This document shows positions 9,144 to 12,163 of a stretch of DNA of 40,767 bases, in pieces. The notes under the pieces were generated by a model. It saw only the letters and a list, made by a program, of their open reading frames with translations. It searched no databases and was not told the origin of the DNA. The number at the start of each line of letters is the position of its first letter. Positions within the stretch are counted from its first letter, which is position 1. Location of the stretch: NCBI GenBank assembly GCA_013141015.1, contig JABFRT010000063.1:1-40767 (forward strand), written 5' to 3'. The position numbers and the translations under genes were made by a program. The stretch comes from Hyphomicrobium sp. (GTDB lineage Bacteria > Pseudomonadota > Alphaproteobacteria > Rhizobiales > Hyphomicrobiaceae).

Positions 9144-9530
9144 TCAGGCGGCCAGCAAACGGTCGACTTCACGAACAAGGTCTTTGAGGTGGAAAGGCTT
9201 CGATAACACGCGCGAATCTTTCGGTGGCGCGTTGTCGCTGTTCAGCACGACGGCGGCAAAACCGGTGATGAACATGATTTTCAAGTCTGGGTCGATTTCG
9301 CTGGCACGCCGGGCCAACTCAATACCGTCCATCTTCGGCATGACGATATCGGTCAAGAGCAACGTGAATGGCTCATGCTTCAACCGTTCATAGGCGTCTT
9401 CGCCGTTTTCGAAGGCAACTACATCGTAGTTGGCCTTCTGCAGCGCCTTAACGAGGAACCCCCGCATCGAGTCATCGTCTTCCGCAAGCAGAATTCGATG
9501 CAAAGGCACGCTTGATGGTTTCGCGGTCAT
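9144..9530 (-). CDS. cpdR: Cell-cycle response regulator CpdR
   Basis: A stand-alone receiver domain (128 residues). In Caulobacter, unphosphorylated CpdR goes to the cell pole and primes the ClpXP protease for cell-cycle substrates; the CckA-ChpT relay switches it off by phosphorylation. Visible here: acidic pocket ED at 17-20, phospho-acceptor Asp61 in LLLTDIVMPKMDG, the Thr/Lys switch residues in FITGFA and LSKPFHL, and a C-terminal Ala-Ala. The two last alanines are known in Caulobacter to let ClpXP degrade CpdR itself. The frame can be extended 49 codons upstream, but that part is not family-like, and ATG at 9530 fits the family length. Confidence 0.93.
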   Translation of the reverse strand: MTAKPSSVPLHRILLAEDDDSMRGFLVKALQKANYDVVAFENGEDAYERLKHEPFTLLLTDIVMPKMDGIELARRASEIDPDLKIMFITGFAAVVLNSDNAPPKDSRVLSKPFHLKDLVREVDRLLAA

Positions 9531-9889
9531 GAACTCTCGCCCGTAAAAAAACTGTAGCTCTATCGATACCTGATTTTCGTTCTCAGGGAAACTTGACGCA
9601 ACTTTGGTAAATGGACCATGAAGGTGTGGATAGCTTGGCGGAACGGGTGAAACAATTCGCAGATCACCGCGCTCCACGCGCTGAGACTATGCAATAGTCA
9701 AGCCCAACACGTTGCAACGCGCAAGATCCGCAATTCCTCCAAGTGACCTTGTGATGTATGGACGGCATTGAGGCGTTGAATGCAAGCCACGGCGGCATGC
9801 GGCGCATTTTCTGCCGCACACCAGATTTACAAGTTACCACCCGGCCCGATAGCGACTTGGCCACACCCCGGCCCAAACCTGGATCCTCG

Positions 9890-10789
9890 ATGACGAAAAC
9901 CGATCCGGACGCAGTTCCCAACGCCTTCTTCCCCTCGTTCGAGGTGCTGCGCCCGGCTGAGCAAACGGCGCCTTTCGTTTTTTCGTCGCCGCATTCTGGC
10001 CGGATCTATCCGCCCGAATTCCTGGCCCTGTCGCGGCTTGATCCGCAAACGCTGCGCAAATCCGAAGATTGCTATGTCGACCGGCTGTTCAGCCCCGTAG
10101 CCTCGCTTGGTGCGCCGGTGCTTTCCGCACGCTTTCCGCGCGCCTATCTCGATTTGAACCGCGAACCTTATGAACTTGACCCGCAGCTGTTCGACGAACC
10201 CCTGCCCGAGCACGCCAATACCCAGTCAATTCGCGTGGCCGGCGGGCTCGGCACCGTTGCCCGCATCGTTGCGGACGGGGAAGAAATCTACCGCCAGCCG
10301 CTCAGTCTGCGCGCGGCGCTCGCCCGCATCGATCAGCTCTATTTTCCATTCCATGCGCAATTGGCCCGCCTGATCGAAGAAACGGCCCAGCGCTTCGGGT
10401 ATGCGATTTTGATCGATTGCCATTCTATGCCGTCATCGGCCATGTCGACGGCCGGTGCCCAGCGCCCTGATTTTGTAATTGGCGACCGTTTCGGCGCCTC
10501 GGCTGATCCGCGCCTGTCACAGCTGGTGCGCGATGCGCTGCATGACCTTGGTTATGATGTGCAGATGAACCGGCCATATGCAGGCGGGTACATTACCGAG
10601 CATCACGGACGCCCCGCGTTTGGCGTTCACGCGCTGCAAATTGAAATCAACCGCGGACTTTATCTGAACGAGGCAACGCTGCAGGAAAGCGCCGGTTTTG
10701 CCAGCTTGCGCGCCGATCTGACCGCGCTTGCGGTGGCGATGTTCAAAACCGTTCCAGCCCTGTTTGAGTTGCGCGCCGCAGCGGAATAA
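9890..10789 (+). CDS. N-formylglutamate amidohydrolase
   Basis: A zinc hydrolase of the FGase family that releases formate from N-formyl-L-glutamate, the last step of one histidine degradation route; the true substrate may differ, since no hut genes are nearby. The protein has 299 residues from ATG 9890; the longer frame to 9758 is not family-like. Motifs: FVFSSPHSGRIYP near the start, RAYLDLNREPYELD, LIDCHSMPSS, DFVIGDRFG, and NRPYAGGYITEHHGRP, which hold the expected His/Glu/Asp metal ligands. It is divergent from cpdR and upstream of the sRNA-hisN region. An amidohydrolase-sRNA-phosphatase arrangement recurs in rhizobia. Confidence 0.9.
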   Translation: MTKTDPDAVPNAFFPSFEVLRPAEQTAPFVFSSPHSGRIYPPEFLALSRLDPQTLRKSEDCYVDRLFSPVASLGAPVLSARFPRAYLDLNREPYELDPQLFDEPLPEHANTQSIRVAGGLGTVARIVADGEEIYRQPLSLRAALARIDQLYFPFHAQLARLIEETAQRFGYAILIDCHSMPSSAMSTAGAQRPDFVIGDRFGASADPRLSQLVRDALHDLGYDVQMNRPYAGGYITEHHGRPAFGVHALQIEINRGLYLNEATLQESAGFASLRADLTALAVAMFKTVPALFELRAAAE

Positions 10790-10815
10790 CGCACGCGGGG
10801 CTGCAATTTTTGGCG

Positions 10816-10907
10816 AAAAAAAAGGCCGTCCGGAAACCGAACGGCCCAAGTCTAGGGAGGAAACGCCCAAGGAGGGCACGACGCGAGCAAGCTCGCCATG
10901 TCGCAAT
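10816..10907 (-). ncRNA. suhB / alpha-r8 (MmgR-type) small RNA, copy 1
   Basis: Read on the minus strand: a GCGAGC/GCTCGC hairpin, a GCCC/GGGC hairpin, then an unpaired stretch with the family hallmark TTTCCTCCCT (forward 10854-10863) and CTAGACTT, then a terminator hairpin (GGCCGTTCGG / CCGGACGGCC with one G-U pair) and eight T (10816-10823). This is the layout of the alphaproteobacterial suhB Rfam family (alpha-r8; MmgR in Sinorhizobium), a trans-acting sRNA with an anti-Shine-Dalgarno segment. MmgR limits polyhydroxybutyrate accumulation. The 5' end (~10907) is estimated from a GATAAT-like -10 at about 10914-10919; length is about 85-92. Confidence 0.85.
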
Positions 10908-11047
10908 GCACAAATTATCGATGCAGTGCAGCGCACACAATTGCGAATTTTGCAGAGCTGAGGGGCTGGAAACGCGGATCGGTTTCCCAATGCGTCATGG
11001 CGCACGAAAGCTTCAACGGTAACAATGCGTTGAAGGGGTGCGCCCAT

Positions 11048-11139
11048 AAAGAAAGGCCGTCCGGCGAGGCGAACGGCCCAAGTCTAGGGAGGAAACGCCC
11101 AAGAATGGGCAACGATTGCACCGTGCGTGAGTCTGCAAC
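11048..11139 (-). ncRNA. suhB / alpha-r8 (MmgR-type) small RNA, copy 2
   Basis: A second copy 230 bases upstream of the first, on the same strand. The 3' part is nearly identical: GCCC..GGGC hairpin, the unpaired TTTCCTCCCT (forward 11086-11095), AGACTT, terminator stem GGCCGTTCG / CGGACGGCC and a T-rich tail with one C (11048-11054). The 5' part and promoter region differ from copy 1 almost completely, including the first hairpin, so the two copies probably respond to different signals while sharing a target-binding segment. The 5' end is an estimate. It is divergent from hisN. Confidence 0.82.
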
Positions 11140-11338
11140 CGTGATCTAAACGATGAGCTGCTTCGCACACATGCGCAATCATAACGAGCATTGCACACAG
11201 GCATTAACAAATAGATGTATCGTCCGTGCAACAACTTCCGTTACTTTAAATCACTTGAGTTAACCCCTTTTGGGGGCAAGTAACGCCAAGTTTTCGCCCG
11301 CCAGCCGTTGCAACAAACTGAAATGATGAGGACAACCG

Positions 11339-12163
11339 GTGACTGAACGGAGCGGGACCAGCAATGTCCCAAGCGGCTTCCACAGCCTGCTGAAATGTGC
11401 CCACGACCTGGCTGACCTGTCGGGGCCGGTGACCCTCAAACACTTCCGTAAGCCGGTCGCCGTCGACAACAAGGACGGCAAAGGCGGTTTTGACCCTGTC
11501 ACTGTCGCCGACCGGGGTGCTGAGCGAATCATCGTCAAAGAATTAAAGCGGCGGTTTGCCGATCATGGCGTGATCGGTGAAGAATACGGCACCTACAAAG
11601 GCACCAGCCGCTACAATTGGGTGCTCGACCCAATAGATGGCACGCGCTCGTTCATTATCGGCAGCCCGATTTGGGGCACGCTGATCGGCCTGCTGGACGG
11701 CGAGACGCCGCTGCTCGGGCTGATGGATCAGCCCTACACCGGCGAACGCTTCTGGTCGGAGCAGAAAGCAGCCTTTTCCAGCAATCGCTTTGGCAAAAAG
11801 ACCAAACTCAAAACCCGCGCCTGCGCTGAACTCAAGCACGCGATCCTGACGACTACTCACCCCGACCTGTTCGCGGCTGGCGCGCAGCAAGCGGTGCTTG
11901 CATCCCTCAAAAGCCGCGTGCGCATGGCGCGCTATGGCACCGATTGCTACGGCTACTGTATGCTCGCGTCGGGCTTCATTGATCTGGTGGTTGAGCCGGA
12001 CCTGAAAATCTATGACATCGCCCCGCTGATCCCGATTATCGAGAAGGCCGGCGGCGTGGTGACAACATGGGACGGCAAACCGGCAAGCCGCGGCGGCGAC
12101 ATCATCGCGGCCGGCGACGCTCGCATCCACGCGGCAGTCCTGAAGCTGATCGCGAAGGCGTAG
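11339..12163 (+). CDS. hisN: Histidinol-phosphatase, inositol monophosphatase family (HisN type)
   Basis: A magnesium-dependent phosphatase of the IMPase fold that in actinobacteria and rhizobia removes phosphate from L-histidinol phosphate. The 274-residue protein shows metal-ligand motifs GVIGEEYG (Glu, about residues 77-84), VLDPIDGTRSF (about 98-108) and the C-terminal KIYDIAPLIPIIEKAGG with its Asp. DPVTVADRGAE is also typical. The SuhB and inositol monophosphatase names are alternatives in this superfamily; overall length and motif spacing fit HisN. The start is GTG with GAGGA about 6-7 bases upstream. The two sRNAs lie divergently upstream. Confidence 0.85.
   Translation: MTERSGTSNVPSGFHSLLKCAHDLADLSGPVTLKHFRKPVAVDNKDGKGGFDPVTVADRGAERIIVKELKRRFADHGVIGEEYGTYKGTSRYNWVLDPIDGTRSFIIGSPIWGTLIGLLDGETPLLGLMDQPYTGERFWSEQKAAFSSNRFGKKTKLKTRACAELKHAILTTTHPDLFAAGAQQAVLASLKSRVRMARYGTDCYGYCMLASGFIDLVVEPDLKIYDIAPLIPIIEKAGGVVTTWDGKPASRGGDIIAAGDARIHAAVLKLIAKA

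What the first reader, a model, noticed from the sequence alone, without database searches (positions are those of the whole stretch)
10816..11139. Tandem suhB/alpha-r8 small RNAs with shared seed and different promoters
Two copies on the minus strand share the TTTCCTCCCT seed, adjoining hairpin and terminator but differ almost fully in 5' hairpin and promoter. Tandem copies beside the hisN/suhB-type gene suggest a duplicated sRNA with split regulation: the same targets (ribosome-binding sites) under two signals.
Basis: partly seen in the sequence, partly recalled or inferred. Interest (0 to 1): 0.72.

Follow-up and report, generated by a model that had tools for sequence, protein, structure and literature searches.

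The report
Ancient split pair of MmgR sRNAs
Next to a histidine-synthesis gene this Hyphomicrobium carries two copies of a known small regulatory RNA that share the part that pairs with messenger RNAs but have different control regions, and only one keeps the kind of DNA site through which a related bacterium ties this RNA to its carbon-storage level.

Summary
Both minus-strand elements match Rfam RF00519 (suhB/MmgR/alpha-r8): 73.5 and 59.2 bits, cut-off 41. They lie between an N-formylglutamate amidohydrolase gene and hisN in Hyphomicrobium. The family is known; so are multiple copies with unrelated promoters. Comparison adds three things. (1) The pair is old: 22 of 22 genus genomes have exactly two seeds here; hisN-side copies (H) of the genus and of 28 of 32 multi-copy family loci group together, apart from the amidohydrolase-side copies (N) and single copies of other families. 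(2) The published PhaR/AniA operator core TGCRNYGCA lies upstream of N in 21 of 22 genomes, as in S. meliloti mmgR, and of H in 0 of 22; H has its own conserved element. (3) 'Same targets' is only partly supported: a second anti-Shine-Dalgarno loop, UCCUU, is present in N (22 of 22) and not in H (0 of 22). Best reading: an ancestral duplication in which N stayed the PHB-coupled MmgR orthologue while H was uncoupled and lost one pairing loop. Transcription, PhaR binding and targets are inferred, not shown.

The parts
10816..10905 (-). N copy: predicted alpha-r8 transcript (amidohydrolase side), about 90 nt; 5' end inferred
   Evidence: RF00519 hit 10809-10884, 73.5 bits; fold z -3.91
10854..10863 (-). 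N copy seed TTTCCTCCCT (anti-Shine-Dalgarno 10-mer)
   Evidence: unpaired 0.77-1.0
10865..10877 (-). N copy hairpin GCCC-TCCTT-GGGC with second anti-Shine-Dalgarno loop
   Evidence: 22 of 22 genus N copies
10878..10904 (-). N copy class-specific 5' hairpin
   Evidence: covariation over the genus
10823..10847 (-). N copy terminator stem-loop followed by T run
   Evidence: T5+ in 22 of 22
10922..10935 (-). Two overlapping PhaR/AniA cores (TGCGCTGCA, TGCACTGCA) in the inferred N promoter
   Evidence: pattern TGCRNYGCA, 21 of 22 genus N copies; consensus
10912..10940 (-). Inferred N promoter: -35 TTGTGT, 17 nt, -10 TAATTT
   Evidence: by register with relatives; not found by the generic scan
10938..10954 (-). 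Second conserved N element TGC-N7-GCA-A-TTG, factor unknown
   Evidence: 22 of 22 genus N (pattern chosen after inspection)
11048..11143 (-). H copy: predicted alpha-r8 transcript (hisN side), about 96 nt; 5' end inferred
   Evidence: RF00519 hit 11040-11117, 59.2 bits; fold z -3.42
11086..11095 (-). H copy seed TTTCCTCCCT
   Evidence: unpaired 0.95-1.0
11097..11110 (-). H copy hairpin GCCC-ATTCTT-GGGC, without the UCCUU loop
   Evidence: CU loop 0 of 22 genus H copies
11113..11141 (-). H copy class-specific 5' hairpin
   Evidence: covariation over the genus
11054..11079 (-). H copy terminator stem-loop with interrupted T run (TTTCTTTA)
   Evidence: T5+ in 1 of 22 genus H copies
11150..11178 (-). 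Inferred H promoter: -35 TTGCGC, 17 nt, -10 CATCGT; contains CGAA-N6-CAT (11153-11165)
   Evidence: 18 of 22 genus H, 22 of 32 family first copies, 0 in the other groups (pattern chosen after inspection)
9758..10789 (+). N-formylglutamate amidohydrolase (FGase) gene, usual neighbour of alpha-r8
   Evidence: PF05013, 265 bits; below the cut-off of the hutG equivalog model
11339..12163 (+). hisN-type histidinol-phosphatase gene
   Evidence: TIGR02067, 303.3 bits, cut-off 275.15

Best explanation
Two separately transcribed alpha-r8 (MmgR-type) trans-acting sRNAs that arose by tandem duplication near the base of the family Hyphomicrobiaceae. Both present the open 10-nt UUUCCUCCCU seed to ribosome-binding sites, presumably with Hfq. 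The amidohydrolase-side copy (N) is the orthologue of S. meliloti mmgR and keeps its promoter layout with a PhaR/AniA box between -35 and -10; free PhaR should repress it, and PHB granules that titrate PhaR should release it. The hisN-side copy (H) has a different conserved upstream element without that box and has lost the second anti-Shine-Dalgarno loop; it should run independently of PHB status and act on an overlapping but not identical set of mRNAs. Shown: family membership by covariance model, age and conservation of the two classes, class-specific 5' hairpins, partition of box and loop. Inferred: transcription, 5' ends, PhaR binding, Hfq dependence, targets.
For: Two RF00519 hits above cut-off. 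Exactly two seeds in the interval in 22 of 22 genus genomes. H grouping: 22 genus H and 28 of 32 family first copies on one side of a branch, 98/91; N, 32 family second copies, 16 of 17 single copies and 1 first copy on one side of another, 92/93. TGCRNYGCA 130-40 nt before the seed: N 21 of 22, H 0 of 22, family second 26 of 32, family first 3 of 32, single copies 46 of 67 (45 of 66 distinct); shuffled expectation under 0.4 per group. PhaR binds the S. meliloti mmgR promoter at such a box (PMC12542648, passages). The own genome encodes PhaR, Hfq and a phasin, and the core lies upstream of its phaR and phasin frames. CU loop: N 22 of 22, H 0 of 22, family second 32 of 32, first 4 of 32, single 54 of 66 distinct. 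H-specific CGAA-N6-CAT 18 of 22 and 22 of 32, 0 in the other five groups. 30 (H) and 40 (N) consecutive positions around the seed invariant in 22 of 22.
Against: No transcript data. The generic sigma-70 scan finds no promoter for either copy. With looser cores the H side is not empty: YGCRNYGCR in 4 of 22 H and 7 of 32 family first copies, TGCNNNGCA in 3 of 22 and 5 of 32. CGAA-N6-CAT and the second N element were chosen after seeing the sequences. Counts are of related species, so not independent. The tree bootstrap had not settled, 71 of 132 inner branches are open, several branches are long, the root is midpoint only, genus N is not one group (4 changes), and 4 of 32 family first copies are not with H. 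For N, one slid control reaches the same number of double changes (3 pairs, 5 cells). Third copies are mixed: CU loop 6 of 10, PhaR core 6 of 10.
Confidence: 0.7

Rival explanations
1. Redundant dosage pair: two copies with the same targets and effectively the same role; the flanking differences are drift without functional meaning.
For: Identical seed and shared core in both copies; sibling sRNAs that act redundantly exist, e.g. OmrA/OmrB, as told in PMC12559287 (section 12).
Against: Upstream regions are conserved within each class (H-H 0.686, N-N 0.710) and not between them (0.518); the PhaR core and the UCCUU loop are partitioned; both 5' hairpins covary.
Confidence: 0.2
2. Only N is a working regulator; H is a decaying copy or a cis element of hisN.
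For: H has the lower score (59.2 against 73.5 bits), an interrupted T run (T5+ in 1 of 22) and lacks the ancestral box and loop.
Against: 30 invariant positions around the H seed in 22 of 22 genomes, a covarying H hairpin (98.1% of cells paired, 4 of 8 pairs with double changes), its own conserved upstream element; the element lies on the strand opposite to hisN, as noted for the motif in 2005 (PMC1273637, passages).
Confidence: 0.05
3. One of the two acts mainly as a sponge or decoy, or is itself sponged by a CrfA-like RNA, so the pair tunes an RNA-RNA circuit rather than two mRNA regulons.
For: In Caulobacter the sponge CrfA pairs with the shared 10-mer of four alpha-R8 siblings (PMC12559287, section 7).
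Against: The two copies have the same, not complementary, seed. The only exact complement of the 10-mer in this genome outside the two genes is at G000:C28:68785-68794, inside overlapping open frames. Imperfect complements were not screened for sponges, so this is weak.
Confidence: 0.05

Closest known systems
MmgR (alpha-r8, RF00519) of Sinorhizobium meliloti
   Same: Same covariance family, same seed, neighbouring FGase gene in relatives, PhaR box in the promoter region (PMC12542648 passages; Sinorhizobium loci)
   Different: Single alpha-R8 copy in S. meliloti (PMC12559287); here two, one without the box and without the UCCUU loop
SisA-D, four alpha-R8 siblings of Caulobacter crescentus
   Same: Siblings with shared 10-mer and unrelated promoters; SisA beside FGase (PMC12559287, section 7)
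   Different: The other three Caulobacter copies lie at separate places; here a tandem pair conserved over a family, with the PhaR core kept by one class
AbcR1/AbcR2 (alpha-r15)
   Same: Tandem sRNAs with CU-rich anti-Shine-Dalgarno motifs in one intergenic region (PMC7143759, passages)
   Different: Another sRNA family and another locus (beside lsrB)
OmrA/OmrB
   Same: Tandem sibling sRNAs with a shared pairing region (told in PMC12559287, section 12)
   Different: Co-regulated and redundant there; here the upstream regions are divergent

Membership tests
alpha-r8 / RF00519 (suhB, MmgR) | Covariance model match above the gathering score | tested here: met
   73.5 and 59.2 bits against 41
alpha-r8 / RF00519 (suhB, MmgR) | Unpaired 10-mer UUUCCUCCCU downstream of a weak hairpin | tested here: met
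   Both copies
alpha-r8 / RF00519 (suhB, MmgR) | Rho-independent terminator | tested here: met
   Stem-loop in both; T run interrupted in H, so met less well there
alpha-r8 / RF00519 (suhB, MmgR) | One copy adjacent to an FGase gene | tested here: met
   FGase at 9758-10789, PF05013
alpha-r8 / RF00519 (suhB, MmgR) | Hfq-bound transcript that represses mRNAs | not testable with these tools
   An hfq gene is present; binding, transcript and targets need experiments
PhaR/AniA-repressed promoter (N copy) | Operator core TGCRNYGCA in the promoter region | tested here: met
   Two overlapping cores at 10922-10935; 21 of 22 genus N copies
PhaR/AniA-repressed promoter (N copy) | PhaR binding and response to PHB | not testable with these tools
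   Needs EMSA and reporter assays; a phaR gene is present
PhaR/AniA-repressed promoter (H copy) | Operator core TGCRNYGCA in the promoter region | tested here: not met
   0 of 22 genus H copies, 3 of 32 family first copies; looser core in 4 of 22 and 7 of 32

The most novel reading that the evidence does not exclude
Hyphomicrobiaceae carry a second, distinct class of alpha-r8 sRNA (H): an old paralogue freed from the PHB sensor PhaR and stripped of one anti-Shine-Dalgarno loop, with its own regulon, so that one storage-linked sRNA function has been split at one locus into a PHB-gated and a PHB-independent arm.
Probability: 0.4. Interest if true: 0.6.

Novelty: new variant of a known kind. Interest (0 to 1): 0.45.

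Why it matters
If true, it is a natural pair in which the seed is held constant while operator and auxiliary loop differ, kept through the diversification of a bacterial family. That makes two open questions directly testable: why bacteria retain sibling sRNAs, and what the second anti-Shine-Dalgarno loop of MmgR contributes. It also proposes which signal drives one of the two copies in Hyphomicrobium.

Tried and rejected
Third genomic hit (G000:C69, 36.1 bits), first suspected to be a third alpha-r8 copy: rejected, it is RF02356 BjrC1505 (54.6 bits, cut-off 50). Sponge search by exact complement of the 10-mer: one further site in the genome, inside overlapping open frames. Targets: the genome has 70 sites within one mismatch of the complement (reversed-pattern control 36), the two sRNA genes included; of 28 others examined, 8 lie 2-14 nt before a start codon of a frame of 70 aa or more. 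A PQQ alcohol dehydrogenase looked attractive (GGGAGAA just before the ATG in the own gene and in 4 of 4 close orthologues), but its pairing energy (-19.0) is beaten by 2 of 30 window gene starts, so it stays a lead. The phasin start was only looked at by eye; its pairing was not computed. Concerted evolution of terminators: within-genome H-N similarity hardly above permuted (85 of 2000 as high in the genus, 137 of 2000 for family first-second), stronger only for second versus third copies (2 of 2000). The T-run filter wrongly dropped many H copies; its counts were replaced.

Rows left out of counts: the family set is 34 fetched loci of the 50 same-family genomes; L136 (G040) had no recognisable flanking gene and was not counted; one seed-like site inside a gene (L126) was dropped. 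Of the 80 named loci, 62 have one seed in the interval (59 of them exact), 6 none within one mismatch (L063, L084, L085, L086, L088, L095), 8 several (2 of these the same DNA as family loci), 4 belong to the genus set. The single-copy set of 67 is these 62 plus 5 order-level loci; L012, an order-level locus with two copies, is in no set. The tree used 17 single-copy loci as examples, one of them (L028) of the same family. The genus is that of the genome tool; 5 of the 8 multi-copy named loci bear Hyphomicrobium in their titles and are not in the genus set.

Full report
WHAT IS THERE. cmscan of the whole window gives two RF00519 (suhB, now MmgR) matches, both on the minus strand: 10809-10884 (73.5 bits) and 11040-11117 (59.2 bits), gathering score 41. 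They lie between an N-formylglutamate amidohydrolase gene (9758-10789 +, PF05013) and a hisN-type gene (11339-12163 +, TIGR02067 above cut-off). I call the hisN-side copy H and the amidohydrolase-side copy N. Record titles of the nearest amidohydrolase loci place the window in Hyphomicrobium. The own genome, 97.6% complete, has no further match above cut-off; its weak third match is another known sRNA, BjrC1505.

ANATOMY. Each copy has a class-specific 5' hairpin, a GCCC/GGGC hairpin, the open 10-mer UUUCCUCCCU and a terminator stem-loop. The predicted transcripts (5' ends inferred) fold with z -3.91 (N) and -3.42 (H); seed positions are unpaired at 0.77-1.0 and 0.95-1.0. A run of five or more T follows in 22 of 22 genus N copies and 1 of 22 H copies, so H may terminate less well and some read-through from H into N is possible (inference). 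Over the 22 genus genomes (20 distinct rows) the H 5' hairpin has 98.1% of cells paired, 4 of 8 pairs with double changes and a covariation score reached by 0 of 500 shuffles; the number of such pairs alone is reached by 25 of 500. The N 5' hairpin has 95.7% paired and 3 of 12 such pairs, the score reached by 1 of 500; a slid control gives as many double changes. Runs of 30 (H) and 40 (N) positions around the seed are invariant in 22 of 22.

AGE. 22 of 22 genus genomes have exactly two exact seeds in this interval. In the same family outside the genus, 34 loci were examined, of 50 genomes searched: 22 have two copies, 10 three, 2 one. Of 80 named loci, 62 have one seed in the interval, 6 none, 8 several, 4 are of the genus. 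On a tree of 135 copies, 22 genus H and 28 of 32 family first copies lie on one side of a branch (98/91); 22 N, 32 family second, 16 of 17 single copies and one first copy (G052) lie on one side of another (92/93). Three first copies (G036, G061, G044), all 10 third copies and one same-family single copy (L028) lie outside both. The same three first copies also keep a CU loop, as does G043, which groups with H. The tree is short of signal: bootstrap not settled, 71 of 132 inner branches open, long branches, midpoint root. The simplest reading is one duplication near the base of the family, with H the derived paralogue and N the orthologue of the single-copy MmgR genes; extra third copies came by further duplications.

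PROMOTERS. Mean similarity of the regions -130..-16 is 0.518 between H and N of one genome (0.467 with H shuffled), 0.686 among H and 0.710 among N across the genus. The PhaR/AniA consensus was taken from papers, before counting: TGCRNYGCASMA, deduced with footprints, in Bradyrhizobium (PMC6201568, passages), and a palindrome with core YGCRNYGCR in S. meliloti, where PhaR shifts the mmgR promoter and changes in the palindromes abolish the shifts (PMC12542648, passages). In the stretch 130 to 40 nt before the seed, TGCRNYGCA occurs in 21 of 22 N, 26 of 32 family second, 6 of 10 third, 2 of 2 only copies and 46 of 67 single-copy loci (45 of 66 distinct), but in 0 of 22 H and 3 of 32 family first copies; shuffled expectation is under 0.4 in every group. 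The looser YGCRNYGCR is found in 22 of 22 N and 32 of 32 second copies, and also in 4 of 22 H and 7 of 32 first copies, so the contrast is strong but not absolute. H has instead CGAA-N6-CAT after a TTG in 18 of 22 and 22 of 32, and 0 in the other five groups; N has a second element, TGC-N(5-7)-GCA-N-TTG, in 22 of 22 and 20 of 32, and 0 in the other five. These two patterns were chosen after looking at the sequences and their factors are unknown. The own genome encodes PhaR, Hfq and a phasin, and the core occurs at -111 and -108 of the longest frames of phaR and the phasin (the phaR start codon is uncertain). A generic sigma-70 scan reports no promoter for either copy, so the -35/-10 assignments rest on register with relatives.

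PAIRING SURFACES. The seed is shared, so many targets should be shared. But the hairpin before the seed carries UCCUU, complementary to AAGGA, in 22 of 22 N copies, and a CU-rich loop in 32 of 32 family second copies and 54 of 66 distinct single-copy loci; H has it in 0 of 22, family first copies in 4 of 32 and third copies in 6 of 10. A review tells of an anti-SD motif in the first loop of MmgR, predicted to take part in targeting (PMC7143759, passages). The claim of identical targets is therefore weakened.

MECHANISM. By analogy with SisA and MmgR, both RNAs should repress translation by covering ribosome-binding sites, helped by Hfq (inferred). For N, free PhaR should repress and PHB accumulation should release transcription, as for S. 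meliloti mmgR (inferred from operator and synteny). For H no signal can be named.

KNOWN AND NEW. The suhB motif was recognised in 2005 as a likely sRNA on the strand opposite to suhB, with several copies in many genomes (PMC1273637, passages). Caulobacter SisA-D are alpha-R8 siblings with unrelated promoters and a sponge; that paper cites a phylogenetic study for copies adjacent to each other (PMC12559287, passages, section 7 and part 1 of section 12). I saw no description of the H/N classes, of the partition of the PhaR box or of the loop loss in the listings. The cited phylogenetic study did not come up in these searches, and the 2017 mmgR paper is not held, so priority is not established. 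Verdict: real, well conserved, a new variant of a known kind.

Noticed in passing
L003:1424-1575 (G000:C69): BjrC1505-type sRNA (RF02356, 54.6 bits, cut-off 50) upstream of a DUF1465 gene; the same sRNA core beside a DUF1465 gene in 12 of 14 fetched genus loci as well, and above the RF02356 cut-off in 5 of 5 loci scanned. It also weakly matches RF00519 (28-36 bits), sharing a CCTCCCT stretch.
   Followed up: yes
L194 (G020:C1:476239-476311 -): One genus genome, G020, has a third, dispersed alpha-r8 copy above cut-off (46.4 bits), not at the hisN locus and without the DUF1465 neighbour.
   Followed up: partly
L154:1513-2577 (G000:C2): The genome carries an acsF gene (Mg-protoporphyrin IX monomethyl ester cyclase, TIGR02029 499 bits, cut-off 192.5), hinting at bacteriochlorophyll synthesis; its start is preceded by GGGAGGAAAC, complementary to the alpha-r8 seed.
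   Followed up: partly
L162, L180-L183: A PQQ-dependent alcohol dehydrogenase gene (TIGR03075) has GGGAGAA just before its ATG in the own genome and in 4 of 4 close orthologues (81-87% identity): a candidate alpha-r8 target, not beyond control genes by pairing energy.
   Followed up: partly
L004, L129, L142 (family loci with three copies): Second and third copies of one genome can share near-identical terminator halves while their 5' halves differ, which suggests recent duplication or conversion of the 3' module (2 of 2000 permutations as high over 10 loci).
   Followed up: partly
window 9144-9677 (-): CpdR-type cell-cycle response regulator (NF046022, 191.3 bits, cut-off 180) near the sRNA locus.
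   Followed up: no
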